The notes beneath the pieces are model-generated. The model made no database searches. It saw only the letters and a list, made by a program, of their open reading frames with translations, and was not told the origin of the DNA. Positions 8,765-49,757 of a stretch of DNA of 60,923 bases are shown here, one piece after another (position 1 is the stretch's first letter; the number at the start of each line of letters is the position of its first letter). Made by a program: the position numbers and the translations under genes. Source of the DNA: Bacteroidales bacterium (GTDB lineage: Bacteria > Bacteroidota > Bacteroidia > Bacteroidales > WCHB1-69); contig JAFRUI010000008.1 in NCBI GenBank assembly GCA_017438945.1, forward strand, positions 1 to 60,923, given 5' to 3'.

Positions 8765-9745
8765 ATGTATAAAATTGCAGTAGTGGCCGGTGGAGATTCC
8801 GGTGAATATGAGGTCTCCTTGAAAACAGCGGATAATGTCTTTCAACAGCTTGACAAGTCGTTGTTTGAGCCGTACATGATTCTTTTCAAGGGCACTGATT
8901 GGCATTATAAAACCTCAGATGGACGGCAAGTCCAGATTGACAAAAACGATTTTTCGCTGACTGTTGGCGGACAGAAGATTGTGTTCGATGCCGTGTTCAT
9001 CGCCATTCATGGCACGCCTGGCGAAAATGGAAAATTGCAGAGCTATTTTGAAATGATCAAGATGCCATACGTGGGTTGCACAAGCTTCCCGTCAGCCTTG
9101 ACATTCAACAAGTTCTACTGTAATTTGGCCGTCGCGCAGTTAGGAGTTCCGATTGCCCCGTCACTGCATTTTTATGCCGGCGATCCCATGGATGTGGACC
9201 GCATTGAAGAGGTCTGCGGATACCCCTGTTTCGTGAAATCCTGCAATTCCGGCTCCAGCGTGGGCGTGACGAAGGTGCATGGGCGTGAGGAACTGAAAAC
9301 CGCTTTCGAGGAGGCGTTGAAATACGATAACCAACTGATAGTGGAAAAAATGATCCATGGTCGCGAATTGGCCTGCGGCGTGACAGCAGTCTATGGCGAT
9401 GTCAAGATGTTGGCTATCACGGAAATCGTGGCCCATAACGAGTTCTATGACTACAACGCCAAATATACGGATGTGGGCCACAGTCTCATCACTCCTGCCG
9501 ATATCGCCCCCGACATGCAGAAACTTGTCAAGCAATACGCAGAGTTGGTTTTCCGCCAGCTCGACTGCAAGGGCATCGTCCGCGTGGACTTCATTCTTGA
9601 TGAGGATGCGAAAAAGCCTTATTTCCTGGAAGTCAACACGATTCCCGGACAAACGGCTATGAGCATCATTCCGGCACAGGTGAAAAGCCAGGGATTGGAT
9701 GTGCAGGATTTCTACACGAAATTGGTGATGGAGGCGTTGGCTTAA
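8765..9745 (+). CDS. ddl: D-alanine--D-alanine ligase
   Basis: ATP-grasp enzyme, 326 residues, making the D-Ala-D-Ala dipeptide for peptidoglycan precursors. The N-terminal VAGGDSGEYEVSLKTA segment is the Bacteroidota version of the Ddl entry motif; CFVKSCNSGSSVGV is the ATP-grasp loop and FLEVNTIPG carries the metal ligands near the C-terminus. I prefer the ATG at 8765 (MYKIAVVAGG), with 8756 a near alternative. The TAA stop is the first codon of a 7-base tandem array that fills the gap to the next gene, a peptidoglycan hydrolase. Confidence 0.96.
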   Translation: MYKIAVVAGGDSGEYEVSLKTADNVFQQLDKSLFEPYMILFKGTDWHYKTSDGRQVQIDKNDFSLTVGGQKIVFDAVFIAIHGTPGENGKLQSYFEMIKMPYVGCTSFPSALTFNKFYCNLAVAQLGVPIAPSLHFYAGDPMDVDRIEEVCGYPCFVKSCNSGSSVGVTKVHGREELKTAFEEALKYDNQLIVEKMIHGRELACGVTAVYGDVKMLAITEIVAHNEFYDYNAKYTDVGHSLITPADIAPDMQKLVKQYAELVFRQLDCKGIVRVDFILDEDAKKPYFLEVNTIPGQTAMSIIPAQVKSQGLDVQDFYTKLVMEALA

Positions 9746-9798
9746 TGGATAATTGATAATGGATAATTGATAATGGATAATTGATAATGGATAATTTT
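9743..9798. repeat. Heptanucleotide array, 8 units
   Basis: Alternating units TAATGGA and TAATTGA, eight in all, the last one changed to TAATTTT. The first TAA is the ddl stop codon, and the ATG at 9787 inside the seventh unit is the start of the next gene, so the array forms the whole intergenic space. Confidence 0.92.
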
Positions 9799-10806
9799 GG
9801 AAAAACGATAGCGTGTGTAATAATTGGGCTGATGTCCGGATTTGCGGCATTTGCGCAGTACAACGAGCAGGATATCCGCGATTATATCGAGCAATACGCA
9901 GAGGTGGCTATCCAGAAGATGCACGAGTACAAGATTCCGGCGAGCATCACGGTGGCGCAGGGCATTTTCGAAAGTGCCTGCGGCAAAAGCCGGCTTGCGG
10001 TGGAAGGCAATAACCATTTCGGCATCAAATGCCACACCGAATGGACAGGTGACACCATCTTGGTTGATGATGACGAATTGCAGGAGTGTTTCCGTAGATA
10101 CGCCTCTGTGTCAGAATCCTACACAGACCATTCACTGTTCCTGACCAATCGGAAACGTTATTCCAATCTGTTCCAGTTAGACATCATGGACTACAAGGCA
10201 TGGGCGCGGACCCTGAAACAGGATGGTTACGCCACCAACCCACAATATGCCGACCGGCTCATCAGTCTGATCGAACGTTTCAATATCGCCCGTTTGGATA
10301 CGATCTACTATCAGCAGAAACATGGCTATGTTCCGATGGCGGTCGCCGAATCCAAACCGGTGGTGCAGAATACCCAGCCTGTTGAAAAACCTGCTGAGAC
10401 GAAGAAGCCCGGCAAGAAGGTGTTCACCGCAAGCGGAAGTGAGTACCCGGCGGATGAAAGCCCGTTCACCTACAGGAAAGTTTTCAAGAACAACAATACC
10501 TATTTTGTCATCGCCGAGAAAGGGGACACCTACGAGAAAATCGCGCAGGATATCCTGGTGATGTCCGATAATCTGCGGAAGTTCAATGATGTCGGGGCAA
10601 ATGAGGAGCCTATGGAGAATGAGATTGTCTATGTGGAGGCCAAAGCCCGCGGGAATGCCACTCGCGTCCACACCGTCCAGCCCGGTGAGACATTGCGTTA
10701 CATTTCGCAACGCTACGGGGTCCAGCTACGATATATTTTCAAATACAATATGTTGGATGAAAATTCAGTTATTCATCCGGGAGACCAAATATTATTAAAA
10801 CGATAA
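9787..10806 (+). CDS. LysM-containing N-acetylglucosaminidase
   Basis: Exported peptidoglycan hydrolase, 339 residues. A signal peptide (about 1-24, ending GFAAFAQ) precedes a FlgJ/AcmA-type glucosaminidase domain (about 25-170) with the expected catalytic Glu62 in AQGIFESACG and a second conserved Glu73 before NNHFGIKC. A charged linker leads to two C-terminal LysM domains (about 235-285 and 293-339). The start codon ATG lies within the heptanucleotide array. Ten bases separate it from the paralogue downstream, and the order ddl, hydrolases, LytM protein suggests a cell-wall turnover unit. Confidence 0.92.
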   Translation: MDNFGKTIACVIIGLMSGFAAFAQYNEQDIRDYIEQYAEVAIQKMHEYKIPASITVAQGIFESACGKSRLAVEGNNHFGIKCHTEWTGDTILVDDDELQECFRRYASVSESYTDHSLFLTNRKRYSNLFQLDIMDYKAWARTLKQDGYATNPQYADRLISLIERFNIARLDTIYYQQKHGYVPMAVAESKPVVQNTQPVEKPAETKKPGKKVFTASGSEYPADESPFTYRKVFKNNNTYFVIAEKGDTYEKIAQDILVMSDNLRKFNDVGANEEPMENEIVYVEAKARGNATRVHTVQPGETLRYISQRYGVQLRYIFKYNMLDENSVIHPGDQILLKR

Positions 10807-10816
10807 ATTCAGAACG

Positions 10817-17392: not shown

Positions 17393-20300
17393 CTAGTCTC
17401 CGTTTTCAGATTCTTCTTCAACATCCGTGAAGTATTTCTTCACAAATTTGTTTTTCAAACTTCTGTTACCTAACTTATAGGTGAAGGAAGGAAGTCCTTT
17501 GGCCTGATCTGGCGCTTGGAACCTGTTCTTGGGCTTCACGCTGGAGATGGCATCGTTGAAGGCTTTGTCGGAGGCAAAGGCGGAAACGGCGTTGTTGTCG
17601 AACTGGAAGTAGTAGAACTGATTGTCAAATTCAAAATAGAGGTAGAGGCGGTTGCGGGAACCTCTTTTTTCAATCACGATGCGGCCCGGAACCATCTTAT
17701 ATACCGTCTTTTCGCCACAAATAATCAGTGGAAGCTGCGTTTGCGATTTGAATGTGGATTGCTCTTTGTCCCACTCAAAGTCGATGTTGGAGAATAGGAA
17801 TTTCACCTGAAGCGCCTCCGGCAGACGACGGTTTTGTCCCAAAGCCACATTCCGCTGATATCGGTCATACTCCGTTTTGCCCAGGATATTGTAAAGTGCA
17901 AGGTCAAAAGCTTCGTCTTGAGAGACATCCACGAAGTCCAATGAGGCTTTGTCTATGGCCTTGTTCATCAGATCCATGGATTTTTCATTGAAGAAGAAGT
18001 TGATGGAGGTGGTGAGGTGCATTTCCGCGGAGTCGGCGAGGGTGTAGTTCACAATGGTACCGTTGGTGACGAAGTCCACGCGGCCCAGTTTGGCGCCCAT
18101 ATCGATGGTGCCGCTGCCGTGCGCCTCACAGTTGTCGGTGTTGAGTGTAATGATGTTGCCCGGAATACTGGGGTCGTTCAATTTCTCCAAAGAGGCCGCC
18201 TTGAACTCCCGCGTCTCCTTGTCGTAGGTGATGTAGCCGAACACGTTGATGTATTCCGCATCGTTGAACTCGTCTTTGGCCACACCAAAAGCCGTGTAAA
18301 TCCGTCCGGTTTTGTTACTGGAGGCAATGGCCACCACCACTTTGCGTTCATTTACGTCTTTGGTGCGGTCATGCACCTGCAGCATGATGTTGTTCGGATC
18401 CACCTGTTGCAGGATTTTCATACGGGCGTGTTTGATGGTGTCACAGCCGTGGATGATTTCCACACCGCCGAAATAGGAGAGGAACGGGTTTGTGCTGTGC
18501 AGTTCCGCACGGCCATCGAAGGCAAACTGGTCACTGAAGTGGAAGTCCTTCTCCAACGGGATTTTCGCCTCCCCGAAGGTCTCTTTCATAAAGTAAACCG
18601 TGTCGAAATAAAGCGTCTGCACACGTTGCTCGGCGTCAATGTAGTCATAATAGCCGTTGGCATAGAATCTTGTGGCGCTTTGCACGCGGGAAGTGCAGTT
18701 GTAAAGCTCGTGATATTTGTTGTCGCGGCCAGCCAGAATGCGCGATTTTTCCAGAACGTCCATGGCCGCATTCTTCCGGATAGTGACATCCCCATGCAAT
18801 GGGGTGATGGCTGCGTCACCGACGTTGATGTAGCGCACTCCATGGGCGAAGATGATGTTCTTCGCGAAATCATACTCCGCATTCACGGCCGTGAACATGT
18901 AATTGGAATTTACGGCAACAGCGTATAATTCATTTCCAACGCTCTGCATGTCAACGAGTTCCTTGATGGACGTGTTGTCAATGTCAACGTCCTTGTGCGG
19001 ATCGTCCCACTTGAATCTCAGGATGGTGGAGTCGATGGGATCCCATTCAAACTCGGAAGATTTCGCCTTGATTTCATTTTGCACGAAGTAGACTTCCGAA
19101 GCCTGTCCATTTGCTAGAAAATGACCTTTTCGGGTCTTGAAGTCAATGTGGGAATTGTAGTTGTCGGTGGAAAAAGCGATATCTTTCCCACCTCCGATGT
19201 CGTAAATCCGTAGGTCGGCGGTGTCCGCTAACAGTTCGTGGTGCTTGAACTGGAACAGCCGGGAGGAAATGTCAGCACGATTGAACTTTACAATGCCGGT
19301 GCCGAACAGACCGTTTGGGGTAATCTTGGAATTACCGGTAAGCTGCGCCTCACGGAACAGATCCATAGGCTCTTGCAATGTATGGATGAACATTTGGTCC
19401 TGATAAGGCTCCCAATGCATATAGGCTTCATTGACAGAGGCAGGGGGAAATTCTGTACCCGCCATCTGCTCATCCACCACATGCTGGTTGGCAGCGCCAT
19501 TGGTGGAGTCAATGTAGAAGACCAGACTGTCAGAGAACGTATGGGAGGTGATGTAGTCAATAGTTCCTTTTCCTCGCAAACCTCTGTTACTAAGACTGAT
19601 ACGTCCTTGATAACCGCCTTTTGTGCCATACATGGGCAACCCGCTCGTGTTGTGGACGAAACCGAGGGAGAAGTCGGATTGAACCTTCAGCGGTTCGGCA
19701 ATGTCCGGGAAAATGCCGCCGGAAACCAACGCTCCGGTGAATTTCATGGAGTCAATCACGAAATTGTCGAGGTTGACAATCCGGAATTGGTTGACCAAAT
19801 AGTAGAATTTGTCCCGATTATAAACGCCTCCCAGCACATAAGGTTGGTCATAGAAGACCTTGCCGCCTTTTCGCGCCTCAAAAATCGGATAGTCGGGATA
19901 GTCCACCATACCGCATTTGTTGCCGGGCACATCGATGTACAGCACCCCTGACAGCTCCTGAATCTGGCTGCGCACACGCTGAAGTTTGTAATCACCGTAC
20001 ATGTCCATAGGACCGTTTTTGTCTTCCACGTACATGATCAGCGTGTCAATGATATCCATATCGACCAAAAACCGGTCATAGTCGAATTTGCAGTTGTGTG
20101 TCACGAAATCGAACAAACCGCCGATAACCCTGCCGGAGAAAACCATGTCCCGGTTCTTTTTCACGGTCACCAACTCGTCCATGGGATAGACATTGACAAT
20201 CTGAGGGTCACTCAACACAAAAAACTCACATCCAGTTATTTTTAAGTCATTGGTCAGCAGGTCTAAAGAGGCGTAATGCGTTTTGGACTCCAGCTTTATG

Positions 20301-22813: not shown

Positions 22814-22848
22814 GTCCAACGTCTTACGTCTAAAGTCTTACGTCCTAA
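22814..22848. repeat. Heptanucleotide array, 5 units
   Basis: Units GTCCAAC, GTCTTAC, GTCTAAA, GTCTTAC and GTCCTAA between prmA and the PepSY-like gene. The last unit includes the TAG stop codon (22847-22845) of the minus-strand PepSY-like gene. Confidence 0.85.
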
Positions 22849-24440
22849 TATTCAATCGGCTTTCCAGACAAATTGAACCACAGCTCCTGCTCCTCTTGAG
22901 TTTTCTTGTCCACAATGATGACCTTGTAGGCATTCAGTTTGTCGGCGAGGCGTTTCACGGAATAGAATTCTTTCAGCTTGTAGTTCTTATATTCTTTTTT
23001 GAGATAATCCTGAATGGTGGCGGAGAGATTGTCATTCTTCCCCATCACCCAGGTCTCTACGATTTCACCATAACTGTTGAAGACGCAGATTTCCTTGCCT
23101 CTGGTGGTGTAGAAGATGGCCTGATACTCCATATAGTCCCCTTCTCTCCACTCCACATTGTTCACTTTCGGGTATTTCAGCTTGAATGCGGCCTTGACAT
23201 TGTCAGGTACACTTGACGCGTCGTCATTGTCCAGCTCCATGTTCATTTTTTCGTAATATTTGTTGAGTGCGTCATCCTCATCGCTCTCTTGTGCGCCACC
23301 ACCTAATTCATAGTCGGGGTCTATGGTGCGAATCAGTTTGCCGGCTTTGTCAAAGAAGACGGTGGTGACCAACTTGGCCTTGTAGTTGGCTTTTTCGTAG
23401 AATTCCACCATCATTTTGTCATCTTTGTCTGCTCTCTGCTCTTTGACAGCATTCTTGAACCGCCAGCTGGGGTAGAAGTCGTTGAGGTGTTTGGCCATTA
23501 GGCCAGATACAGACTCTTCAGGCATGATGGTCAAGGTTTTTTCCCACACACCAGCAGGGGAGATGTAGACGGCTGTTTTCTTGCCTTGGTTCAGGCAACG
23601 GGCGATGTACATACTGTCTACTAGGAACCAGTTAAGCTCGGCAGGATGCAACACCTTTTTAACCAAAGCTTTGGAAACGACTTCAGGCACGGTGTTGGCT
23701 TTGATGGCGATATTGCCGTGCTCATCTTTCACCACGGGTTCAGGCTTCTCTTTCTTGGGTTTGGCCTCTTTTGGGGATTGCGTGGCGGCAGGCTTGCTAG
23801 TTGTCGTAGTGGGTTTCGGGGTGCTTTTCGCCGCTTTCTCGGCTGCGGCTTTTTCAGCGGCCTCGCGTTTCGCTTCCTCCTCCTTAGCTGCTTGTTTTTC
23901 AGCGGCAGCGGCTTTTGCCTGGTCTATCTTGTCGGGCTGCTTTACGGTTGGATCTTGGAAATCATCCGGATCCTCGCGTGTAAGTAGCTTGTTCTGGCCT
24001 GTCGAGGCGAAGGTCAGAACGGAGGGCTTTGTCCCGACGCCTTCAGGTTTCACCTCAAGGTAATAGTGCGTGTTCTCATCCTCTTTTTCTTCAAGGCAGC
24101 TCATGCTGATGTTGAAGTCAGGGTAATTGGTCTTCACATAGTCGGTGATGGATGACGGCAGCTCGCTGACAGGAACTGTGAAGAGCGTGCGTATCCATTC
24201 GCCGCTTGCGGACAGAAACACTTTCCCGGCTGTTGCGCCGTCTTTAATGGTGGCAATGTAGGTGCCTCCTTCTTTCATCCATCCGGTGACTTTCACGTAA
24301 GAATATTGCTCTTCCAACGTTTGAATGACATCCGCCGGCACATCTGTGGGTTTCAGTTTTTGAGCCGTAATAGTGTTGGTGTTGAGAATAACTATCTGAA
24401 TCACAGATAATAACAGGACAAATAAAATCTTATTTTTCAT
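22845..24440 (-). CDS. Exported PepSY-like repeat protein
   Basis: 531 residues with a signal peptide. At least three modules resemble the PepSY-like (beta-lactamase-inhibitor-like) family: about 25-105, about 245-370 and about 420-531, the last with SSVPDNVKAAFKLKYP followed by VNNVEWREGDYMEYQ. Between the first two lies a low-complexity linker (about 170-245) of Ala/Lys/Glu runs, then Pro/Thr/Lys runs. Family function is unknown; the modules may bind peptides or inhibit proteases in the periplasm. I start at the ATG ending at 24440; a TTG further up overlaps the promoter. Confidence 0.85.
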   Translation of the reverse strand: MKNKILFVLLLSVIQIVILNTNTITAQKLKPTDVPADVIQTLEEQYSYVKVTGWMKEGGTYIATIKDGATAGKVFLSASGEWIRTLFTVPVSELPSSITDYVKTNYPDFNISMSCLEEKEDENTHYYLEVKPEGVGTKPSVLTFASTGQNKLLTREDPDDFQDPTVKQPDKIDQAKAAAAEKQAAKEEEAKREAAEKAAAEKAAKSTPKPTTTTSKPAATQSPKEAKPKKEKPEPVVKDEHGNIAIKANTVPEVVSKALVKKVLHPAELNWFLVDSMYIARCLNQGKKTAVYISPAGVWEKTLTIMPEESVSGLMAKHLNDFYPSWRFKNAVKEQRADKDDKMMVEFYEKANYKAKLVTTVFFDKAGKLIRTIDPDYELGGGAQESDEDDALNKYYEKMNMELDNDDASSVPDNVKAAFKLKYPKVNNVEWREGDYMEYQAIFYTTRGKEICVFNSYGEIVETWVMGKNDNLSATIQDYLKKEYKNYKLKEFYSVKRLADKLNAYKVIIVDKKTQEEQELWFNLSGKPIEY

Positions 24441-24467
24441 TTTTGTAAAAATTATCAAACAGAGCCA

Positions 24468-32534: not shown

Positions 32535-33318
32535 GTATCTGAACAACCGTAAAACAATAAGCCCGAAGGTGGCTATCGTGTTGGGCTCCGGTTTAGGCGG
32601 CCTGAGCGAAAAAGTCGAAATAGTGGATGAAATCCCGTACAAAGAGATTCCCAATTTTCCGGTTTCCACGGTGGAAGGCCACAAAGGGACAATGATTTTC
32701 GGCAGATTGAACGGGGTGGAGGTGCTGGTTTTCAACGGCCGTTTCCACTATTATGAGGGTTATCCGATGGATGTGGTAACCTATCCACAACAGATTCTGC
32801 CCGGCATCGGGGTGAAAACGGTGATTTTGTCGAATGCTGCTGGCGGCATGAATCCCACGTTCCAGGTGGGTGACATCATGTTGATTCGAGATCATATCAA
32901 CCTGTTTGGCACGAACCCGCTTTTGGGTCCGAATGACGATGAGCTTGGACCGCGTTTCCCGAATATGAGTGAGGTCTATTCGCACCGATTGGTGAAATTG
33001 GCGCAGCAAACGGGCAAGAAATTGAATATTCATCTGCAGGAAGGCGTCTATATTGGCGTGTCGGGTCCTTGTTTCGAAACGCCTTCAGAGTATAAGATGT
33101 TTTACCTTTTCGGAGCTGATGCCGTGGGCATGTCCACTGTTCCGGAAGCCATCATGGCTCGTCATCGTGGTATCGAAGTGTTCGCGCTTTCCGTCATCAC
33201 GGATCTCGGAATCATTGGCAGAGTGGAAAAAGCCAGTCATGAAGAAGTTTTGGCCGCTGCCGCCGCTGCCGGTCCGCAAGTGGTGGACCTTATCTATAAT
33301 ATGATGCCGGAGATTTAG
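32494..33318 (+). CDS. punA: Purine-nucleoside phosphorylase
   Basis: 274 residues, trimeric PNP type. It splits inosine and guanosine into base and ribose 1-phosphate. Motifs VLGSGLGGLSEK, the phosphate/His segment FHYYEGYP, SNAAGGMNP and VGMSTVPEAIMARH are all present. The start overlaps lpxK by 41 bases in another frame. The TAG stop is the first codon of a 7-base tandem array separating it from a convergent gene. Confidence 0.96.
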   Translation: MLEEKKQRIAQTVEYLNNRKTISPKVAIVLGSGLGGLSEKVEIVDEIPYKEIPNFPVSTVEGHKGTMIFGRLNGVEVLVFNGRFHYYEGYPMDVVTYPQQILPGIGVKTVILSNAAGGMNPTFQVGDIMLIRDHINLFGTNPLLGPNDDELGPRFPNMSEVYSHRLVKLAQQTGKKLNIHLQEGVYIGVSGPCFETPSEYKMFYLFGADAVGMSTVPEAIMARHRGIEVFALSVITDLGIIGRVEKASHEEVLAAAAAAGPQVVDLIYNMMPEI

Positions 33319-33357
33319 CTATTGGCTAAATTGGTCCTCAGTCCTCAGTCCTAAGTC
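33316..33357. repeat. Heptanucleotide array, 6 units
   Basis: Units TAGCTAT, TGGCTAA, ATTGGTC, CTCAGTC, CTCAGTC and CTAAGTC. The array begins exactly at the punA TAG stop and its last unit opens with CTA, the TAG stop (33353-33351) of the convergent gene. Nothing else lies between the two genes. Confidence 0.88.
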
Positions 33358-34635: not shown

Positions 34636-34729
34636 CACATTTCAGTTGAAAGAACACAACTGTTGTAAGTGAAAAAAGTTTAATTCAGCCGTTGGCTGTT
34701 GGCTTGAAGTGAAAGAGAATCAGTTCGAA

Positions 34730-41447: not shown

Positions 41448-42028
41448 TCGAAAGTGTTTATGAGGTGCATGGCATCCTCTTTAAGATATTGTATGACAGG
41501 CTGCAGGGAGTCGTTGTTGGGCGTTTCGTCAAAGTATAGGGTGGCGCGAACGAATCGGTGAGCACTGTCGGTCAGCCAAAACTGGAACGGCGTGGCCACT
41601 TCTTTGCCGTAAATTTCGTAAGTTTGTCCCCAAAGGTGTGTTTCCGGATCTTTGATGACAGAATATTGCACGTCATCCGCTTTCTGATAATGGAATTTCA
41701 CCATTTTGTCTTCGGAAACCATCAACTTTCGCAGACTGTCCGCATTCTTGACTTCAAAACAGGTGAACCGGAGCGATGCTTTCAAATCAGGATAAGAAAC
41801 GGTCATCCATAAAGTGTTGTCCTTTTGTTTTTCTATAGTGGTGTTTGCGAAAACGGACTGTTCATATCGGAAAGGAAGGGAAGTGTCTAAAGTCCGGTAT
41901 TGGTGATTTGGCAGGTCAATACGGAAATAGCCCATAGGCTTTGGCTCGGGCAGAGGTCTTGGCTTACAGGCTGAAAAAAATACGCATAAACCCATCGTTA
42001 TCAGGAAACAAAACAGGGCTTTTTTCAT
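41435..42028 (-). CDS. gldD: Gliding motility lipoprotein GldD
   Basis: 197 residues. Lipoprotein signal with Cys21 (FFSACKPR), then the GldD opening PKPMGYFRIDLP and a C-terminal YFDETPNNDSLQPVIQYLKED. GldD is needed for gliding and T9SS function in Flavobacteria; in non-gliders it accompanies the T9SS. The T9SS tails on the C10 protease and EEP protein fit. It lies 18 bases downstream of rpoD and overlaps the LuxE-like gene. Confidence 0.9.
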   Translation of the reverse strand: MKKALFCFLITMGLCVFFSACKPRPLPEPKPMGYFRIDLPNHQYRTLDTSLPFRYEQSVFANTTIEKQKDNTLWMTVSYPDLKASLRFTCFEVKNADSLRKLMVSEDKMVKFHYQKADDVQYSVIKDPETHLWGQTYEIYGKEVATPFQFWLTDSAHRFVRATLYFDETPNNDSLQPVIQYLKEDAMHLINTFEWRP

Positions 42029-42046
42029 GAAGATGGAGATGTTTTC

Positions 42047-42907
42047 CTATAAATAGCTTTTTAAGTTCTTGTTTTTTGCACTTTGACGCAGTCTTTTAAG
42101 GGCGCGTTCTTTGATTTGCCGCACGCGCTCGCGGGAGAGCTCCAGCTTGTCGCCGATTTCGTCCAGCGTGTGTTCGTGCGAGGTGCCGATGCCGAAGAAA
42201 AGACGCAGGACATCCGCTTCCTTGTCGGGGAGGGTCTTCAACAGATCGTTGATTTCAGAGGAGAGGGACTCTTTCATCAGCGAGGTGTCTGTGTTCTCGT
42301 CGTTGTCATGGACGAAGACATCCACGAAACGGGTTTCCTCGTTGGGTGCAATCGGGGAGTCAATGGATTGCGGGTGGTTGTTCATCTTCATGATCTCCGC
42401 CACCTTATAGACGGGCATGTCCATGGCGTTGGCGATCTCTTCAGTGGTGGGCAGGCGGTTGAGCGTCTGTTCCAAACGGGCGGTTTCTTTTTTGATTTTG
42501 TTGATGACACCGACTTGGTTCAGGGGCAGTCTCACGATGCGCGACTGGTCAGCAATAGCCTGCAGGATGGCCTGACGGATCCACCACACTGCGTAGGAGA
42601 TGAATTTAAAGCCGCGCGTCTCGTCGAAACGTTGCGCGGCTTTGATAAGTCCCAAGTTGCCCTCGTTAATGAGGTCTTGCAGTCCGATACCTTGATTCTG
42701 GTACTGCTTGGCCACGGACACGACAAAGCGCAAGTTGGTGGTGACCAACTTGTTGAGGGCATCCTCGTCCCCAGCTTTGATTTTACGTGCCAGCTCCACC
42801 TCTTCATCCGCGCCAATCATCTGCACCTTGCTGATGTCGGACAAAAACCGTTCCAGCGATGCAGAATCGCGGTTGGTGATGGATTTCGATATTTTTAATT
42901 GTCTCAT
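42047..42907 (-). CDS. rpoD: Primary sigma factor RpoD/SigA
   Basis: 286 residues, the short Bacteroidota primary sigma factor. [18 protein letters not shown] is the family start, region 2 contains [20 protein letters not shown] and [10 protein letters not shown], and region 4.2 carries [19 protein letters not shown]. Region 1.1 is absent. This is the factor expected to read the TAnnTTTG boxes marked throughout the window. It is co-oriented with gldD and preceded by a large repeat array that lacks an obvious -7 box. Confidence 0.97.
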
Positions 42908-42910
42908 TTA

Positions 42911-43011
42911 TTTAGCTTTTGGCCTTTGGCTTTTAGCTTTTGGCTATTGGCCTTTAGCTATTTTTCCAACAGCTAAAGGCTAACAGCTAACAGCTAACAG
43001 CCGACAGCTAT
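42911..43011. repeat. Two facing heptanucleotide arrays, 7 + 6 units
   Basis: 42911-42959: seven units of the TTTAGCT/TTTGGCT type. 42970-43011: six units of the CAGCTAA type, the complement of the first block. Together they fill the gap between rpoD and htrA and can pair as a long imperfect hairpin. The htrA TAG stop (43010-43008) is in the last unit. Confidence 0.9.
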
Positions 43012-44132
43012 TTTTCAACCTTTTCAGTTGTACCTTTACTATTTAATAAAGTTACATTTTTGGTTAAATTTTCTTTGTTTCTGACTAAAATGACCTTCAC
43101 TTTGTCACCGGGCGACTTTGTTTTGAGCACACCGCGCACTTCCGCCAGGCTGTTGACAGGGGTGTTGTCGATATGAGTGATGACATCGCCTTCCTGAAAA
43201 CCGTTTTGGGCAGCAGCGCCGTTGTCAGAGACTTCGGCCACGTAGATGCCATTTACGTCGCTGAGATTCAGCTCTTTGGCATTGGTGGCGTTCAGCTCCA
43301 TGATGGAAACGCCAAGGTAGGCTTGTTGGGTGGTGCCGAAATGTTCCAGATCGTAGCAGATTTTTTGGACGATATTGGAGGGGATAGCGAAAGAGTAGCC
43401 GGTGTAGTAGCCGTTGCCGGAGGCGATGGCGGTGTTGATACCGACCAGTTTGCCATCAGCGTTGACCAGTGCGCCGCCGGAGTTGCCTGAGTTGACAGCG
43501 GCATCAGTCTGAAGATATACCTCATCGGACATGGTGTTGCGGCCAGTGTTGAGCTGACGGGCTTTTGCACTGATGATACCGGCGGTGACCGTGGAGTTCA
43601 GTCCCATGGGGTTGCCGATGGCCAACACCCACTCACCGATGCGCACGGAATCAGAGTTGGCGAATGTCAGGTAGGGGAGACGGTTCTCGTTGATTTTGAT
43701 GAGCGCCAGGTCGGAGGCGGGGTCGGTACCGATGATTTCGCCCTCATACTCGCGCTTGTCATTCAACGTAATCGTCACTTTTTCCGCATCTTCCACTACA
43801 TGGTTGTTGGTCACGATATAACCGTCGGAGGAGATGATCACCCCGGAGCCGGCTGCCTGCACAGGGTAGGTACTTGGAGCGGAACCGAAGAAATGCTCCC
43901 AGATGGTGCCGCCGAAAAAGTCATCCCACATGGAGTTTTTCTGCGTAAATTCGGTCTTGATATAGACGACAGCGTTCACAGACGACTCTGCCGCTTCTGT
44001 CAGGTCGACATATTTCGCCACCCGTTTTTCCGGTTGCGAACATCCGCTGTATGTGCAGGCGAAAATGGATAAAATTGCGATTAACAGAGCTTTAGAACAA
44101 TTCATTGCTTTCATATTTACTGTATTTTTCAT
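43008..44132 (-). CDS. HtrA/DegP-type serine protease, lipoprotein
   Basis: 374 residues. Lipobox YSGC (Cys31), trypsin-like domain with His111 (TNNHVV), Asp141 (SDLALI) and Ser218 (GNSGG), and a single PDZ domain (about 280-350). Most DegP/DegQ proteins have two PDZ domains, DegS-like ones have one. It would monitor and clear misfolded envelope proteins. Other ATGs at residues 7 and 10 are possible starts; the first is kept because the longer form still gives a good lipoprotein signal. Confidence 0.94.
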   Translation of the reverse strand: MKNTVNMKAMNCSKALLIAILSIFACTYSGCSQPEKRVAKYVDLTEAAESSVNAVVYIKTEFTQKNSMWDDFFGGTIWEHFFGSAPSTYPVQAAGSGVIISSDGYIVTNNHVVEDAEKVTITLNDKREYEGEIIGTDPASDLALIKINENRLPYLTFANSDSVRIGEWVLAIGNPMGLNSTVTAGIISAKARQLNTGRNTMSDEVYLQTDAAVNSGNSGGALVNADGKLVGINTAIASGNGYYTGYSFAIPSNIVQKICYDLEHFGTTQQAYLGVSIMELNATNAKELNLSDVNGIYVAEVSDNGAAAQNGFQEGDVITHIDNTPVNSLAEVRGVLKTKSPGDKVKVILVRNKENLTKNVTLLNSKGTTEKVEK

Positions 44133-44214
44133 TGTATATTCTTATTGAAAACCCTATGATAACGGAAAAGTTTAAAAAAAATTGCATATAAATGGGTTGT
44201 ATCAAAAAAAATCT

Positions 44215-44222
44215 TATTTTTG
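44215..44222 (+). promoter_or_regulatory. -7 box of rplU-rpmA
   Basis: TATTTTTG followed by CCGCC, 35 bases before the rplU ATG. Confidence 0.75.
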
Positions 44223-44257
44223 CCGCCCAAAAAATTACAAACAAAAATTATACCAAA

Positions 44258-44569
44258 ATGTACGCAATTGTAGAAATAGCCGGGCAACAATTCAAGGTTG
44301 AAAAAGACCGCAGAGTCTATGTTCAGCGCCTCAAGGCTGAAGAAGGTGCGCAAGTCACATTTGACCGCGTAATGTTAGTGGATAATGACGGTGATGTCAA
44401 AGTAGGTACGCCGACCGTTTCCGGTGCGAACGTAACCGCTACCGTTCTCCAACACCTGAAAGGTGACAAAGTTCTTGTTTTCAAGAAGAAAAGAAGAAAA
44501 GGTTATCAGAAATTGAATGGTCATCGCCAGTGCCTGACCTCCATCAAGATTGATAACATAACCCTGTAA
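44258..44569 (+). CDS. rplU: 50S ribosomal protein L21
   Basis: 103 residues with the L21 start MYAIVEIAGQQFKVEKD and the C-terminal KRRKGYQKLNGHRQ segment. I start at the ATG at 44258; an earlier in-frame ATG lies upstream of the promoter box. rpmA follows after 30 bases, the universal pairing. Confidence 0.98.
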   Translation: MYAIVEIAGQQFKVEKDRRVYVQRLKAEEGAQVTFDRVMLVDNDGDVKVGTPTVSGANVTATVLQHLKGDKVLVFKKKRRKGYQKLNGHRQCLTSIKIDNITL

Positions 44570-44599
44570 AATTTTTATTAACGATTAAAATTAAGACGT

Positions 44600-44863
44600 A
44601 TGGCTCATAAAAAAGGTGTCGGTAGTTCACAGAACGGCCGCGAATCAGCGAGTAAAAGATTAGGTTTGAAGATCTTCGGTGGTCAGTTCGCCAAAGCTGG
44701 CAACATCATCGTCCGCCAAAGAGGAACCGTTCACAACCCTGGCAAGAACGTGGGAATGGGTAAAGACCACACCCTCTTCGCTTTGTGTGACGGTATCGTC
44801 GAATTCAAAAAGACCTACAAAGACAGATCTTACGTTTCTGTCATTCCTGCCACACAAGAGTAG
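44600..44863 (+). CDS. rpmA: 50S ribosomal protein L27
   Basis: 87 residues starting [16 protein letters not shown], with no N-terminal extension to be cleaved, and [17 protein letters not shown] in the middle. Second gene of the rplU operon. Confidence 0.98.
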
Positions 44864-44907
44864 GAAATAAAAAATCGCGCGGCATTTAAGGATATCGAAA
44901 AAAAGTG

Positions 44908-44915
44908 TATCTTTG
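44908..44915 (+). promoter_or_regulatory. -7 box of tRNA-Thr
   Basis: TATCTTTG followed by CCGCG, 13 bases before the tRNA. Confidence 0.75.
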
Positions 44916-44928
44916 CCGCGCAAAACCA

Positions 44929-45001
<73 letters not shown>

Positions 45002-45010
45002 CAAAATCAA

Positions 45011-45040
45011 AAAAAGAGGAACCTTAAAGTTCCTCTTTTT
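45011..45040. terminator. Bidirectional terminator of tRNA-Thr and adenosine kinase
   Basis: AAAAAGAGGAAC (45011-45022) pairs exactly with GTTCCTCTTTTT (45029-45040), loop CTTAAA. It terminates the tRNA on the plus strand. On the minus strand the kinase's TAA stop (45026-45024) is inside the loop, so coding sequence forms one arm. Confidence 0.88.
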
Positions 45041-45992
45041 TTATATTTGCCCATTCCTCATCGGGAAGTTTTGCACCTATGTACTCAATCAGTCTTGCGG
45101 ACAGATAAGAGGCCAGGTTGCCAGATTTCAATGCACCGAAGTCGTTGATGAGTCCGTATAGGAATCCAGAGGCGTAGATGTCGCCGGCTCCCGTGGTGTC
45201 ACGGCGGACAGCGTCCACAGGAGTTATGGCAGTGACTTCGCCGTCCATCTTGATGTAGGATCCGTCCTTGCCGACTTTCACGATAGCCACGGGACAGTAT
45301 CCCGAGAGCACATGCAGAGCCTCCAGGTTTTCCACGCCAGTGAAAGCTTTGGCTTCCTCTTCATTGGCGAAAATAATATCCACATAATCTCGCAAAAGCA
45401 TTTTCACGAAATCCAAATTGCTCTCTATCAAATTATAGCTGGCCATATCCATGGAGATTTGAAGCCCTTGCTCCTTGGATTTCTGACAAATTGACAGGAT
45501 CAAGTCGTGGTTAAAGATGAGGTAGCCTTCGATATGGATGATGTCGTAGCTTTTCAGGATTTCAGCATCCACTTGGTCGGGTTGCATAGTTGCGGCGGCA
45601 CCGAGGTAAGTAGCAAAGGTGCGCTCTGCATTTTGGGAGATGAAAGAGATGGCCACACCTGTATCTTCGTTGGATTCAATGAGATGCGGGATTACGCCGA
45701 AGCGTTGGCACTCTTCGCGGAAAAGTCTGCCCAAATCATCGTTGCCCACTTTGCCGATATAACCTGCCTGCGCCCCTAAACGGGCCAAACCATGTATGGT
45801 GTTAGCGGTGGAGCCGCCTGTTGCCATGGTCTGCGGCATTCCGGAAATCACCTCCAGAATCTCGCGTTTCCGCTGGGCGTCGATCATCTCCATGCCGCCC
45901 TTCTGCAATCCTAAGCGGTCGAGAATCTCATCATTGTCAATATGCACCAGAATGTCCACCAGTGCGTTGCCGATTCCTAATATTTTCTTCAT
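45024..45992 (-). CDS. PfkB-family adenosine kinase-like protein
   Basis: 322 residues, ribokinase fold. GNALVDILVHID begins the fold, ATGGSTANTIHGLARLG is the first PfkB signature area, and DTTGAGDIYASGF holds the catalytic Asp and anion hole. It resembles the adenosine-kinase branch common in Bacteroidota, though another sugar or nucleoside substrate is possible. Its last codons lie in the terminator hairpin shared with tRNA-Thr. Confidence 0.9.
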   Translation of the reverse strand: MKKILGIGNALVDILVHIDNDEILDRLGLQKGGMEMIDAQRKREILEVISGMPQTMATGGSTANTIHGLARLGAQAGYIGKVGNDDLGRLFREECQRFGVIPHLIESNEDTGVAISFISQNAERTFATYLGAAATMQPDQVDAEILKSYDIIHIEGYLIFNHDLILSICQKSKEQGLQISMDMASYNLIESNLDFVKMLLRDYVDIIFANEEEAKAFTGVENLEALHVLSGYCPVAIVKVGKDGSYIKMDGEVTAITPVDAVRRDTTGAGDIYASGFLYGLINDFGALKSGNLASYLSARLIEYIGAKLPDEEWANIKKEEL

Positions 45993-46031
45993 TTTTCTGA
46001 AATTGAAAAAGTATAAACAGTTCAGTTGATT

Positions 46032-46100
46032 TTATAAAAAAGTGTAGCGAATACCAAGATTCACAATATCGTCAAAATAAGATGAAATAGAAAACAGATT
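46032..46100 (-). pseudogene. Orphan C-terminal end of an outer-membrane barrel protein
   Basis: The minus strand reads 22 codons ending SSYFDDIVNLGIRYTFL then TAA. The intact barrel protein at 51091 ends HYFDWSVNLGVRYTF. The stretch has the final beta-strand with a terminal aromatic, the recognition signal of the BAM machinery, but no start or body: upstream it runs into the AlgX-like gene, overlapping its stop codon in another frame. It is probably what is left of a lost or displaced gene. Confidence 0.5.
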
Positions 46101-47511
46101 ATTTATTTGAGAGTGCAAAAGTACAATTATTTCTAATAGCTTTCAAATCTTTATTTCGGTGGGTGGGCAATTTGTTGCCTTCCAGTTCTTTGAAATATTT
46201 CTCCGGCTCTGTGTAAAGCATATCTAACGCTTTCTTATGGAGAACAGTGTCCACGTTTTGTTTGGTTTCTTTAGCCACATGTAGGACTTCACGGTACTGT
46301 TCTGGATGATATAAAGAAATGCTATCTATAATGTTGAGGGCCATGGAATCGATGGCGGCTTTGTCGTAACAGAGATGCAGCAAGGCTCGCGGCAAAAATT
46401 TATGACTGAATTCGTATAGCGTCACGGTATTATAAATCAACATGATGTAATCGTGTCGCATCAGTTCCTGCTCAAAATCCACCTCCGATGTGGAAGTGTG
46501 TGCCTTATCGCCATGGATAGTGCTGTTATAAAACCAGTAGGTATTTGATTGGAAAATTTCCCAAAGCGGGACATTGTCGAGGATATTCCAAAAGAAAGAA
46601 TCGCCCACGGTCAAAAAATTGGGTTTGGCCGCCAAGGAGTCTCTTTTGACCCCTACCACGGCATATAGATTTTTGGGTGTTTTAATAGGGAATATCAGAT
46701 TGAGAACCAGTTCAAGGTCATTGTCAGGAGAACGGGTTTTGTCATAGTGTTTGTCATAGATGTCGAGGTTAACAAGATTTTGATTACCAATGTGTTCCAT
46801 GTATTTGATAATGGAATCGAAAGCGTGCCAGGAGGCGATATTGCTCCAATGTGCGCCAGTCTCGGTAAATAAAGGATAATCAGCAGTATCCTTGAGATTC
46901 TTGAAAACGGGTATAAAATCAATGTAGTTCACATTGAGGTCGTCGAATCGTTTTTTCAGGTAATCGTAAGCGCGAACACCTATGGGTCTGAAGTATGACC
47001 TGTTTTCGGGAAGATATTCTGGAAAAATAACATGTTTACTGGGGTTTATGTCAACGAAAATGTAGATGTTGTACTCTTTTAGTAACTCCTGTACCTTCCA
47101 TAGACGGAGTGCCTCTGTCTCCAAAATCCGTTTCATTTCGGCCGTGTCGTTGGTGTATTTGTACATCAAGCTCTCGTAGTGTTCTTTGACCCTTCCCTCT
47201 CCAAACAACCAGTTCCCTTTCCCGCGCATCACGGTGGCATTGTTTGTTTCGTGGAAACAGCTCCAGAGATACTGGTTGTAAAGTCGGATCATCCACTCCC
47301 GAAAGCCGAGGTGTTTCAGTAAATATCGGTTCAGACCGTCTTGGAAGGAGTGGTCAGTATAGCTTTTGAGTGTCAGTTTCGGTATTTCCGCTTCGTTGGA
47401 AACCCCATTGAGCGGCTTGAGCTTGAAAACACCGGTGCCGGTTTGGATCAAAATGAGCAGCAAGAGTAATGTCGTGCTGACAAACAATGTTTTATGTAGT
47501 AAATCTTTCAT
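46099..47511 (-). CDS. AlgJ/AlgX-like SGNH protein for polysaccharide O-acetylation
   Basis: 470 residues with one N-terminal membrane anchor and a periplasmic SGNH-like domain. GKGNWLFGEG is the AlgX-family opening; the nucleophile is Ser305 in TVGDSFFWN and the His is His221 in TETGAHWSN. In alginate AlgX the His lies in a D-x-H pair; here that Asp position is Gly219, so the triad may be altered. It should transfer acetyl groups, delivered by the MBOAT protein encoded 9 bases upstream, to an exported glycan. Confidence 0.87.
   Translation of the reverse strand: MKDLLHKTLFVSTTLLLLLILIQTGTGVFKLKPLNGVSNEAEIPKLTLKSYTDHSFQDGLNRYLLKHLGFREWMIRLYNQYLWSCFHETNNATVMRGKGNWLFGEGRVKEHYESLMYKYTNDTAEMKRILETEALRLWKVQELLKEYNIYIFVDINPSKHVIFPEYLPENRSYFRPIGVRAYDYLKKRFDDLNVNYIDFIPVFKNLKDTADYPLFTETGAHWSNIASWHAFDSIIKYMEHIGNQNLVNLDIYDKHYDKTRSPDNDLELVLNLIFPIKTPKNLYAVVGVKRDSLAAKPNFLTVGDSFFWNILDNVPLWEIFQSNTYWFYNSTIHGDKAHTSTSEVDFEQELMRHDYIMLIYNTVTLYEFSHKFLPRALLHLCYDKAAIDSMALNIIDSISLYHPEQYREVLHVAKETKQNVDTVLHKKALDMLYTEPEKYFKELEGNKLPTHRNKDLKAIRNNCTFALSNK
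46116..46123 (-). promoter_or_regulatory. -7 box of the adenosine kinase-like gene
   Basis: TACTTTTG on the minus strand, inside the last codons of the AlgX-like gene and 123 bases before the kinase ATG. The long leader includes the barrel-gene remnant. Confidence 0.5.
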
Positions 47512-47520
47512 GTCTGACCT

Positions 47521-48939
47521 CTAAAACTTGAAATAGATGAAAGGACTGAATCCTGTCGCGCTAATTGCGCTGAGGCAGAATATGAAAAGGAGAATGCTGG
47601 CAGACCAGACAGCAATGTGCTGATTATTTGAGAAATCTGTGTAATATACCCAGTTTTGCATTTTTTTCCCAAATGGGGAGAGAACGATGAAAGCAAGGAC
47701 TATTGCCAGAACGAGTGTGACGTAAAAATGTGGACTTGAAATCAGTACAATTGACTGGAAATCAAAAGCGAAGAGTCTTGAAATAAAGGAGAAGGCATCT
47801 GGCAGGTTTTCGATGCGGAAAATGGCCCAGCCTATCGTTACGATAAGGAAAGTGATGATGACGCTGGGTATCTTTCCCATCTTGTCGTAGATTTTGCTCA
47901 ATCCGATGCGTTCCAATACAAGCCAGAAGCCGTGATATGCGCCCCAAACGACGAAATTCCAGCTTGCGCCATGCCATAATCCCGAAAGGAGAAACACCAC
48001 CCAAAGGTTGAAATACATCCTCGGTTTGGAACAGCGGTTGCCGCCGAGCGGAATGTAAAGATAGTTGCGCATGAATGTACCCAGCGTGATGTGCCAGCGT
48101 CTCCAGAACTCGCTGACACTTGCGGAGTTGTACGGGTTGTCAAAGTTCTCGGGAAAATGGAATCCCATGATTTTGCCGAGACCGATGGCCATGTCGGAAT
48201 AGCCTGAGAAATCGAAATAGAGCTGCATGGTGTAGGCGATGATGGTGATCCATGCTGTGCCGCTACCCATGGTCAGCAAATCGCCTGCAAGCACTGTATC
48301 CACTTGACGGCCAATCACATCTGCAATAAGTATCTTTTTGGAAAGTCCAATCACAAAACGGTAGAAGCCCTGTAGGCTTTCCGACCAGTTCTGCTCCCTG
48401 CTTCGGATTTCGTCTGCAATGTCGCAATAGCGCACAATCGGACCCGCGATCAGCTGGGGAAACATGATGATGTAGAGCATGTAGTCGGTGAGCCGATCCA
48501 TCGGCTTATGGACATTGCGATAAGCATCGACCACGTATGTGATGGATTGGAACGTGAAAAAGGATATTCCGATGGGCAGCACCACCTTCGCGAAAGTGAA
48601 AGGTTCCAAGCCGATGGCCCCCAGTATTGCATTCAGGTTGTCCACAAAGAAGTTCGCATACTTGAAATAACCTAAAAGTCCCAAGCTGATTGCAATGGCC
48701 AATCCTGCAAGTAATTTTCTGTGTACAAGATTATTAGACTTATACAACAACTTTACCAGATAGAAATTGATGATGGTGGAACCGAGAAGCAGAAGGATAA
48801 AGGTCGGTGCCCCATACGAGTAGAAGACGATGGAAAACAGCAACAAAATGATATTTCGCCATTTTTTTGGACCTGCGAAATAGCATATCAAAAAAACAGG
48901 CAGAAACAGTATCAGAAAGACGTTGCTGCTGAAAACCAT
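47521..48939 (-). CDS. MBOAT-family O-acyltransferase (AlgI-like)
   Basis: 472 residues, about ten membrane helices. The family His is in LSGLWHGASWNFVVWG, with the second conserved area SEFWRRWHITLGTFMRNYLY. AlgI/DltB-type proteins move acyl groups across the inner membrane. The adjacent AlgX-like gene completes a two-component O-acetylation module; its glycan target is not identified in this window. Confidence 0.94.
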   Translation of the reverse strand: MVFSSNVFLILFLPVFLICYFAGPKKWRNIILLLFSIVFYSYGAPTFILLLLGSTIINFYLVKLLYKSNNLVHRKLLAGLAIAISLGLLGYFKYANFFVDNLNAILGAIGLEPFTFAKVVLPIGISFFTFQSITYVVDAYRNVHKPMDRLTDYMLYIIMFPQLIAGPIVRYCDIADEIRSREQNWSESLQGFYRFVIGLSKKILIADVIGRQVDTVLAGDLLTMGSGTAWITIIAYTMQLYFDFSGYSDMAIGLGKIMGFHFPENFDNPYNSASVSEFWRRWHITLGTFMRNYLYIPLGGNRCSKPRMYFNLWVVFLLSGLWHGASWNFVVWGAYHGFWLVLERIGLSKIYDKMGKIPSVIITFLIVTIGWAIFRIENLPDAFSFISRLFAFDFQSIVLISSPHFYVTLVLAIVLAFIVLSPFGKKMQNWVYYTDFSNNQHIAVWSASILLFIFCLSAISATGFSPFIYFKF

Positions 48940-48944
48940 TTTTT

Positions 48945-48979
48945 AGGCAATAGGCAATAGGCAACAGGCAACAGGTCCT
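48945..48979. repeat. Heptanucleotide array, 5 units
   Basis: Units AGGCAAT (2), AGGCAAC (2) and AGGTCCT between the MBOAT gene and upp. The array starts 5 bases from the MBOAT start codon and its last unit overlaps the upp TAG stop codon (48980-48978). Confidence 0.9.
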
Positions 48980-49634
48980 ACTCTTTGATGCCGTAGGCGA
49001 GATCGCCGGCATCACCGAGGCCGGGCACGATGTAGGAGTGCGCGGTCAGTTCCTCATCCACAGCACCGATCCAGAAAGTGCAATTGTCTGTGGGGAGCTT
49101 ACTCATCACGTAATCAAGGCCTTGCCGGCTGGCGATGACGCTCACGATGTGCGTGTGCAACGGGTCACCCTTGCTCATGAGTTCCTCGTATGCCAATGCA
49201 AGTGACTGTCCGGTGGCGAGCATCGGGTCGCAAAGAATCAGCGTTTTCTCGTCCAAGTCAGGCGAGGAGAGATAGTCGATTTGGATTTCGAAGGTGCCAT
49301 CCTTGTAATATTTGCGGAATGCGGAAATGAAGGCGTTGTCGGCGTGGTCGAAATAGTTGAGCATTCCCTGATGCAGCGGCAGTCCGGCGCGCAAGATGGT
49401 AGCCAATACCGGCTTTTCCTGCAGGCGGGGAATATTGGCGATGCCCAGCGGGGTGACCACCTCCTGTTCGGCGTAGGCCATGTTCTTGCTGATTTCGTAG
49501 GCGAAAATCTCACCGATGCGTTCCAGGTTCCTTCGAAAACGCATGCTGTCCACCTGCATTTCAACGCTGCGCACTTCGGAGATGAACTCGTTGAAAAGGG
49601 AGTTTTGGGTTCCTAAAATGTTTAGATTTTTCAT
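48978..49634 (-). CDS. upp: Uracil phosphoribosyltransferase
   Basis: 218 residues. Upp makes UMP from uracil and PRPP. The PRPP loop is ILCDPMLATGQSL and the C-terminal uracil-binding region is IVPGLGDAGDLAYG. A salvage enzyme, matching udk, punA and the adenosine kinase elsewhere in the window. Confidence 0.95.
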   Translation of the reverse strand: MKNLNILGTQNSLFNEFISEVRSVEMQVDSMRFRRNLERIGEIFAYEISKNMAYAEQEVVTPLGIANIPRLQEKPVLATILRAGLPLHQGMLNYFDHADNAFISAFRKYYKDGTFEIQIDYLSSPDLDEKTLILCDPMLATGQSLALAYEELMSKGDPLHTHIVSVIASRQGLDYVMSKLPTDNCTFWIGAVDEELTAHSYIVPGLGDAGDLAYGIKE

Positions 49635-49663
49635 AATGCGATTTTTAATGGTGGTTATTCTTT

Positions 49664-49757
49664 TAGTTAGCAGTTAGTAGTCAGCAGTTAGTAGTTGGCA
49701 CACGTTAGAGCGGTAATTACTAACTACTAACTGCTAATTGCTAATTTCTAATTGCCG
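49664..49757. repeat. Two heptanucleotide arrays, 5 + 6 units
   Basis: 49664-49698: units TAGTTAG, CAGTTAG, TAGTCAG, CAGTTAG, TAGTTGG. 49716-49757: units ATTACTA, ACTACTA, ACTGCTA, ATTGCTA, ATTTCTA, ATTGCCG. The second block is roughly the complement of the first, so the pair can form a hairpin. The purB TAG stop (49750-49748) is in the fifth unit of the second block. Confidence 0.9.

What the first reader, a model, noticed from the sequence alone, without database searches (positions are those of the whole stretch)
9743..49757. Family of intergenic arrays built from degenerate 7-base units
At least seven spacers (9743-9798, 22814-22848, 33316-33357, 42911-42959 with 42970-43011, 48945-48979, 49664-49698 with 49716-49757, and a minimal one at 34691-34704) consist of tandem heptamers. 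Each locus has its own word (TAATGGA, GTCTTAC, CTCAGTC, TTTGGCT, AGGCAAT, CAGTTAG), so only the 7-base period is shared, not the sequence. Heptanucleotide STRR repeats are known in cyanobacteria; I do not know of a description for this group. A period of 7 with free sequence suggests a generating mechanism, such as slippage or a polymerase error with a fixed step, instead of a spread repeat.
Basis: partly seen in the sequence, partly recalled or inferred. Interest (0 to 1): 0.8.

Follow-up and report, generated by a model that had tools for sequence, protein, structure and literature searches.

The report
Gene-edge heptamer arrays with fixed polarity
Gaps between genes in this rumen Bacteroidales bacterium hold many short DNA repeats with a seven-letter unit; they are a known kind of bacterial repeat, but here many different repeat words obey one orientation rule, the G-rich strand pointing away from the neighbouring gene, and the cause of that rule is open.

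Summary
The arrays are real and strongly period-7: 87 in a 461 kb sample, against 0-14 at other periods from 4 to 13 and 0 in one Markov copy. "Sequence-free" is wrong: words recur (169 identical word pairs of 3741; mean 6.4 for random spacer 7-mers). Between sister genomes, arrays change length often in 7-nt steps (30 of 59 gaps), or the spacer holds other or no insert.

Two things stand out. (1) The G-rich strand runs outward from the adjacent gene at starts and stops alike (46:2 own sample, 57:11 close relatives, 19:5 other genus members, 10:0 other loci). Opposed neighbours always face each other (24:0); two window pairs fold into strong hairpins. In cyanobacterial plasmids the test was inconclusive. 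(2) One family, (ATAACCN)4, keeps four units between species while N drifts.

Closest precedent: GGGAATC arrays of Xanthomonas, with the same polarity, convergent pairs and four-unit mode (PMC4692102). New here: many words in one genome, only 2 of 87 arrays with four GGG runs. I favour slippage-propagated heptamer arrays filtered by a strand rule of unknown cause.

The parts
9743..9798 (+). TAATKGA array, fills the whole spacer from the stop codon of a D-Ala-D-Ala ligase gene (8744-9745) to the next gene
   Evidence: spacer 35 nt here, 14 in G020, 21 in G013
22814..22848 (-). short degenerate array, G-rich strand on minus, leaves the stop of the gene 22845-24470
   Evidence: TRF 22819-22844; same length in G020 and G013, other arrays at this place in G016 and G011
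33316..33357 (.). two facing remnants between convergent genes: TTGGCTA type from the left, GACTGAG/GGACTGA type (minus) from the right
   Evidence: 14 nt longer in G013, different in G020, G016, G011
34691..34704 (+). two units only, not an array by the thresholds used
   Evidence: absent
42911..42959 (+). TTTGGCT array, left arm of an inverted pair next to the start of a sigma-70 family gene
   Evidence: identical in G020 (42 of 42)
42968..43010 (-). right arm (AACAGCT on plus), runs from the stop of a DegP/HtrA-like gene; hairpin with the left arm
   Evidence: fold z -7.15; the spacer is 2 nt in G016
48944..48979 (+). TAGGCAA array spanning the spacer between upp and a DltB/MBOAT-like gene; touches both genes, so its polarity is undecided
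   Evidence: 14 nt shorter in G020 and G013
49664..49700 (+). AGTTAGC array, upp side of an inverted pair
   Evidence: fold z -4.73
49713..49757 (-). CTAACTA/TAATTGC array (plus-strand reading), runs from the stop of an adenylosuccinate-lyase-like gene (49748-51043)

Best explanation
Intergenic heptanucleotide minisatellites. Shown: length changes in 7-nt steps between sister species; a limited vocabulary of degenerate words recurs in the genome; arrays sit against gene ends with the G-rich strand running outward from the gene; opposed neighbours face each other, and two such pairs in the window are predicted to fold as hairpins. Inferred: the 7-nt step is replication slippage, as others proposed for other genomes. 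Inferred: arrays arise in either orientation but persist mainly where the sense RNA is C-poor behind a stop codon and G-poor before a start codon, so the orientation rule is a selective filter on transcribed strands. Inferred: the (ATAACCN)4 family has gained a sequence-specific role (a recognised site), because unit number and six of seven positions are held.
For: 7-nt steps: 30 of 59 gaps in 52 pairs, 26 of 44 net changes. Vocabulary. Polarity: 31:2 at stops and 19:0 at starts, ties 2 and 1, with no G/C difference in array-free spacers; 46:2, 57:11, 19:5 and 10:0 in four sets; decay with distance 93:10, 27:10, 9:4. Facing pairs 24:0. Size lock and constraint of ATAACC: 36 of 45 copies with four units, 10 same / 2 changed against 19 / 44 (p 0.0009), differences at N 16 of 40 against 3 of 240 elsewhere.
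Against: Arrays touching both genes of a co-directional spacer are G-rich on the sense strand in 12 of 16, so G-rich leaders are tolerated. Array-free spacers show no G/C skew, so no general pressure is visible. ATAACC also lies reversed against stop codons (12 of 38 copies). A first, coarser length test gave p 0.09. Cyanobacterial plasmid arrays gave no clear rule away from genes, and TAACTGA sets in Microcystis are reported in mixed orientation. Slippage was not observed, only inferred from lengths.
Confidence: 0.45

Rival explanations
1. End-directed synthesis: breaks in spacers are extended outward at the 3' ends by a polymerase that repeats a 7-nt step, giving G-rich strands that point away from each gene, then the ends are joined. 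Polarity and facing pairs would come from the making of the array, like telomere addition.
For: Polarity independent of gene direction and of word; facing order 24:0 with same-sign neighbours of other words on one side.
Against: No enzyme was looked for or found; arrays recur as shared words; the rule weakens with distance; mixed order in cyanobacterial plasmids.
Confidence: 0.13
2. Transcription barriers: RNA entering a gene from either side would be C-rich and G-poor, like a Rho loading site (recalled, no call), so arrays guard gene bodies against read-through and antisense transcription.
For: One rule covers both gene ends and many words; ATAACCN leaders are C-rich with N rarely G (1%).
Against: Many arrays are near 28 nt, short for a Rho site by recall; start-side arrays would hinder read-through within operons; no expression data.
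Confidence: 0.13
3. Mobile or inverted-repeat elements whose ends are heptamer arrays insert in spacers and decay.
For: Spacer contents swap between species, with one spacer of 2 nt in G016; ATAACC recurs with constant ends; composite modules are multi-copy.
Against: Different words on the two sides; no back-to-back order in 52 neighbour pairs; no clear target duplication seen in the spacers I read (by eye).
Confidence: 0.14
4. G-quadruplex function, as proposed for GGGAATC arrays in Xanthomonas.
For: Same polarity, pairs and four-unit mode in PMC4692102; 33 of 87 arrays have four GG runs.
Against: Only 2 of 87 have four GGG runs; families such as TAATKGA, AATTCTT or GACTTRA lack G tracts in their consensus.
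Confidence: 0.06

Closest known systems
GGGAATC / GGGGA(C/T)T heptamer arrays of Xanthomonas and Nostoc (Rehm et al. 2015, PMC4692102; sections 10, 11, 13, 16 and passages read)
   Same: Period 7 with free positions; [quoted passage not shown] in Xanthomonas convergent pairs (70 and 75), most often four units, length variation between relatives at the same genes
   Different: One word per genome was studied there; here many words, most without G tracts, plus one family with locked size. In Nostoc they report few paired repeats and more intragenic ones
TAACTGA direct repeats (MacGregor 2015, PMC4679880; abstract, sections 8 and 10, passages read)
   Same: Intergenic heptamers, mostly just before start codons in one Beggiatoaceae genome, 7-nt indels between two Cyanothece strains; the stop-side sets named for Flexibacter litoralis and PCC 8801 are reversed
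   Different: One word; related heptamers rare in that genome; in Microcystis a sample of 24 sets has mixed orientation
Heptanucleotide simple sequence repeats of prokaryotes (Mrazek et al. 2007; seen only as quoted in the two papers above)
   Same: Heptamers most abundant among longer units; slippage over a 7-nt polymerase contact proposed
   Different: No orientation rule quoted
Cyanobacterial STRR heptanucleotide repeats (recalled; one sentence on Calothrix in PMC4692102)
   Same: Several heptanucleotide words in one genome
   Different: Original papers not read

Membership tests
Intergenic heptanucleotide SSR / STRR | Tandem 7-nt units in excess of other periods | tested here: met
   87 against 0-14 at other periods from 4 to 13
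Intergenic heptanucleotide SSR / STRR | Intergenic location | tested here: met
   74 of 87 mostly outside my ORF calls
Intergenic heptanucleotide SSR / STRR | Length change by whole units between relatives | tested here: met
   30 of 59 gaps multiples of 7; the rest are not
Xanthomonas/Nostoc G-rich heptamer arrays | G-rich strand outward from the nearest ORF | tested here: met
   46:2, 57:11, 19:5, 10:0
Xanthomonas/Nostoc G-rich heptamer arrays | GGG runs able to form a three-layer quadruplex | tested here: not met
   2 of 87 arrays have four GGG runs; 33 have four GG runs
TAACTGA repeats | The word TAACTGA in tandem | tested here: not met
   not among the 36 canonical words of the 87 arrays; the nearest are AACTGCT and ACTGATC
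Intrinsic transcription terminator | Stable hairpin followed by a U run | tested here: not met
   two inverted pairs fold strongly but are followed by A-rich sequence; no terminator-like site at the arrays in 42000-50000, a scan limited to loops of 3-8
MITE or other inserted element | Precise insertion with target duplication | tested here: inconclusive
   near-empty spacer in G016 but no clear duplication, read by eye
Rho-dependent terminator | Rho-dependent RNA ends at the site | not testable with these tools
   no expression data

The most novel reading that the evidence does not exclude
Bacterial heptamer arrays share a word-independent syndrome across phyla (7-nt unit, about four units, one or two free positions, G-rich strand outward from genes, facing pairs) because one end-directed DNA synthesis process makes them in gene junctions, with a polarity comparable to telomere addition; some products, such as (ATAACCN)4, are then recruited as fixed binding sites.
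Probability: 0.13. Interest if true: 0.9.

Novelty: new variant of a known kind. Interest (0 to 1): 0.6.

Why it matters
An excess of heptamers in bacterial spacers has been on record since at least 2007 (quoted in PMC4692102), whose authors still left the function open. A genome with many unrelated words separates what is bound to a word from what is general: period, polarity and facing pairs hold for many words, so explanations tied to one sequence (three-layer quadruplex, one binding protein, one spread element) cannot be the whole story. The rule can be tested in any annotated genome with such arrays, and the size-locked (ATAACCN)4 family gives an internal contrast between free expansion and constraint.

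Tried and rejected
Stop-codon seeding (arrays growing in phase with the stop codon): rejected. In 43 genes with an array within 10 nt of the stop, the stop triplet equals the triplet 7 nt on in 12, against 8-19 at shifts of -3 to +3.

Length test, first version: a tolerant unit counter gave ATAACC 5 same / 3 changed against 12 / 33, Fisher p 0.09. It counted five units where the sequence has four, so I replaced it by net gaps inside the aligned array: 10 / 2 against 19 / 44, p 0.0009. The second version was made after seeing the first. The two 'changed' ATAACC rows are loci that G006 has replaced. One search sets aside 33 of 96 other-array and 2 of 14 ATAACC comparisons as lost or replaced; some of its 'changed' rows align unlike sequence. 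In one search, without the identity and gap filter, 70 of 290 gaps were multiples of 7 (chance about 41).

Inverted partners: at looser thresholds direct partners are enriched too (>=13/16: 12 inverted and 11 direct, against 4.5 and 4.8; >=12/16: 24 and 21, against 18.2 and 13.8); only at >=14/16 do inverted stand alone (10 and 2, against 1.5 and 1.2).

ATAACC purely as a start-codon leader: rejected. Of 38 copies 22 have a start within 100 nt, 12 sit reversed against a stop, 4 neither.

two of the ten ATAACC ortholog rows matched a neighbouring copy; by reading, N differences would be 18 instead of 16 of 40, others still 3 of 240.

Cyanobacteria: in 434 kb of plasmid stretches, 18 intergenic period-7 arrays: within 15 nt of an ORF 4 G-out (one touching both genes), 0 C-out, 1 tie; farther away 8 G-out, 5 C-out; neighbour order 2 back-to-back, 1 facing. 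Inconclusive. One of the nine stretches (L148) was fetched because of a weak ATAACC match (E 6e-3), which lies 5 nt before an annotated start in the same orientation. The window array at 49660-49760 has no match in the plasmid collection.

Papers: listings only, except the two papers named. Nothing relevant for the TGTAGAGACG palindrome. Mrazek 2007 and the original STRR papers were not read.

My notebook calls the gene upstream of upp pckA; that was a guess and wrong: it is adenylosuccinate-lyase-like.
Full report
Setting. The window is contig C1 (60,923 bases) of a 1.86 Mb, 44-contig assembly rated 63% complete. The nearest named contigs at upp are rumen Bacteroidales MAGs. Genes beside the arrays include a D-Ala-D-Ala ligase, prmA, a purine-nucleoside phosphorylase, a sigma-70 family gene, a DegP/HtrA-like protease, a DltB/MBOAT-like protein, upp and an adenylosuccinate-lyase-like gene.

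The observation. They are a genome-wide trait. In 461 kb (window plus twenty 20 kb stretches chosen by position), 87 arrays reach 17 of 21 matches at period 7; other periods from 4 to 13 give 0-14, and one Markov copy gives none. Mostly outside my ORF calls: period 7 has 74; periods 6, 8 and 12 have 9 each; the other periods from 4 to 13 have 0-2. Gene calls here and below are my own greedy longest-ORF calls, not annotation.

Words. The 87 arrays have 36 canonical words. 169 of 3741 pairs share a word, against 6.4 on average (maximum 15 in 20 draws) for random 7-mers of array-free spacers and 16.4 (maximum 25) for shuffled words. Families are degenerate in fixed places: ATAACCN, TCACTNW, AGCYAAN, TAACTRC, TAATKGA, GAATGNW, GACTTRA. 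Arrays occur in some other Bacteroidota loci with other words, for example ACGATTT types in L088, L096 and L103; most loci outside the genus have none.

Homologous spacers. One search printed the spacer upstream of upp for 20 loci. It holds an inverted pair of AGTTAGC arrays here and in L042, L046 and L048; an inverted pair of GACTTAA arrays in L043, L049, L050 and L102; a TGTAGAGACG palindrome in L041, L044, L047, L051, L052 and L068; an 8-nt array in L045; and no insert in L053. L054-L056, L063 and L081 I did not class. These contents do not follow the order of upp identity. In the sigma/protease spacer G016 has 2 nt where this genome and G020 have 100 nt with the array hairpin and G013 has a 159-nt composite. 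Where the same array is present, lengths often differ in 7-nt steps: 30 of 59 gaps in 52 pairs of at least 90% identity; pairs share loci, so this is not 59 independent events. Over 96 comparisons of non-ATAACC arrays, 19 kept their length, 44 changed (26 by a multiple of 7) and 33 were lost or replaced.

Placement and polarity. Non-ATAACC arrays hug stop codons: 43 of 64 within 10 nt, against 16 of 60 on the start side. The strand rule is the main finding. For arrays within 15 nt of one gene only, the strand read outward from the gene has more G than C in 31 of 35 at stops (2 the other way, 2 ties) and 19 of 20 at starts (1 tie); array-free spacers show no difference (G 0.194, C 0.194 at stops; 0.167 and 0.160 at starts). 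Arrays close to both genes are excluded here; read from the nearer gene they are 5 G>C and 9 C>G. Re-run with ATG-only ORFs and period 8 added: 46:2 in the sample where the rule was found; 57:11 in stretches of five close relatives, many orthologous to the sample; 19:5 in 23 loci that I take as the same genus by upp identity of 75% or more; 10:0 in 39 other loci, one of them labelled Gammaproteobacteria. In the sample plus close relatives it weakens with distance: 93:10 within 15 nt, 27:10 at 16-50, 9:4 beyond. Of 52 neighbouring array pairs in one spacer, 24 face each other, 28 have the same sign, 0 face away (10 of the 24 in the sample, 14 in relatives). Inverted array pairs are thus the meeting of two outward-pointing arrays. 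Two such pairs in the window fold far better than shuffles (z -4.73 and -7.15), four other arrays do not. They lack a U run and the scan found no terminator-like site there.

A size-locked family. CTTC-AATAACC-(NATAACC)3-ATT: with the spacing left open from 1 to 30, its two ends are found 45 times in this genome, 36 with exactly four units, 5 with three, 3 with two, 1 with five. It occurs in 19 of 40 genomes of the genus, this one included. A stricter pattern gave 18 of 60 relatives: 18 of 36 in the genus, 0 of 24 in other genera of the order. None of the copies I listed lies in this window, but G013 has one in the homologue of the 42911-43010 spacer. At orthologous places its length stayed the same in 10 of 12 comparisons, while a neighbouring array has 5 units here, 7 in G020 and 16 in G013. 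Differences fall on the free position in 16 of 40 cases and elsewhere in 3 of 240. N is G in 1%. Its ATTA end faces the gene: within 60 nt, 14 forward and 1 reverse before starts, 0 forward and 6 reverse after stops. I read this as constraint on a recognised sequence; what recognises it is unknown.

Mechanism. The 7-nt step fits slippage, a proposal already in print. Slippage alone has no reason to orient arrays by gene ends. A filter on transcribed strands can: C-poor trailers and G-poor leaders would survive. Against the leader half stands that arrays touching both genes of co-directional spacers are G-rich on the sense strand in 12 of 16, and ordinary spacers show no skew. End-directed synthesis would give polarity and facing pairs at once, but no enzyme was looked for. 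Mobile elements explain recurrence but not the missing back-to-back order. I put the filter model first at 0.45.

What is known. Rehm et al. 2015 (PMC4692102; [quoted passage not shown] For Xanthomonas they also report 70 and 75 convergent pairs, a mode of four units and length variation at the same genes; in Nostoc few pairs. They discuss quadruplexes and leave the function open. Here most words lack GGG runs (2 of 87 arrays have four; 33 have four GG runs), so three-layer quadruplexes are not needed; two-layer ones are not excluded. MacGregor 2015 (PMC4679880) described TAACTGA arrays before start codons in a Beggiatoaceae genome, also in 15 Cyanobacteria and five Bacteroidetes; stop-side sets named for F. 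litoralis and PCC 8801 are reversed, which fits an outward word, but a sample of 24 sets in Microcystis is mixed, which does not. My own test on cyanobacterial plasmids was inconclusive. I saw no paper on many-word heptamer polarity in searches, which cover open-access papers only.

Verdict. Real and widespread in this genus; a known kind of repeat with new breadth: many words, one polarity, facing pairs, and one size-locked family. The cause of the polarity is open.

Noticed in passing
Loci L041, L044, L047, L051, L052, L068 upstream of upp; G016 in the homologue of window 33316-33357: A palindrome of about 30 bp, TGTAGAGACG...CGTCTCTACA, recurs in spacers of relatives and takes the place of arrays. 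I recall similar palindromes in cyanobacteria; not checked.
   Followed up: partly
L013:15569-15716, L015:3696-3776, L016:14370-14461, L023:7608-7664: Period-8 arrays, mostly one word family (ACGATGAG), in the same genome.
   Followed up: partly
L016:15167-15229, L023:14888-14946, L027:9760-9799: Period-6 arrays of ACTTAG and ATAGTT types.
   Followed up: no
L014:13100-13270 and 18560-18630; homologous spacers of L011 and L020 in relatives: Further spacer modules in several copies: C/G-rich hairpins of the CCCCCCTTTAGGGGGG and GCCCC..GGGGCTGCT types, combined with heptamer arrays.
   Followed up: no
L148:19992-20032 (Euhalothece plasmid pEu3): A cyanobacterial plasmid has ATAACCA units 5 nt before an annotated start codon, in the orientation common here; a single weak match.
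   Followed up: partly
L078 (JAUIBE010000001.1): A contig labelled Gammaproteobacteria carries a upp gene 62% identical to this Bacteroidales one; a mislabelled bin or transfer.
   Followed up: no
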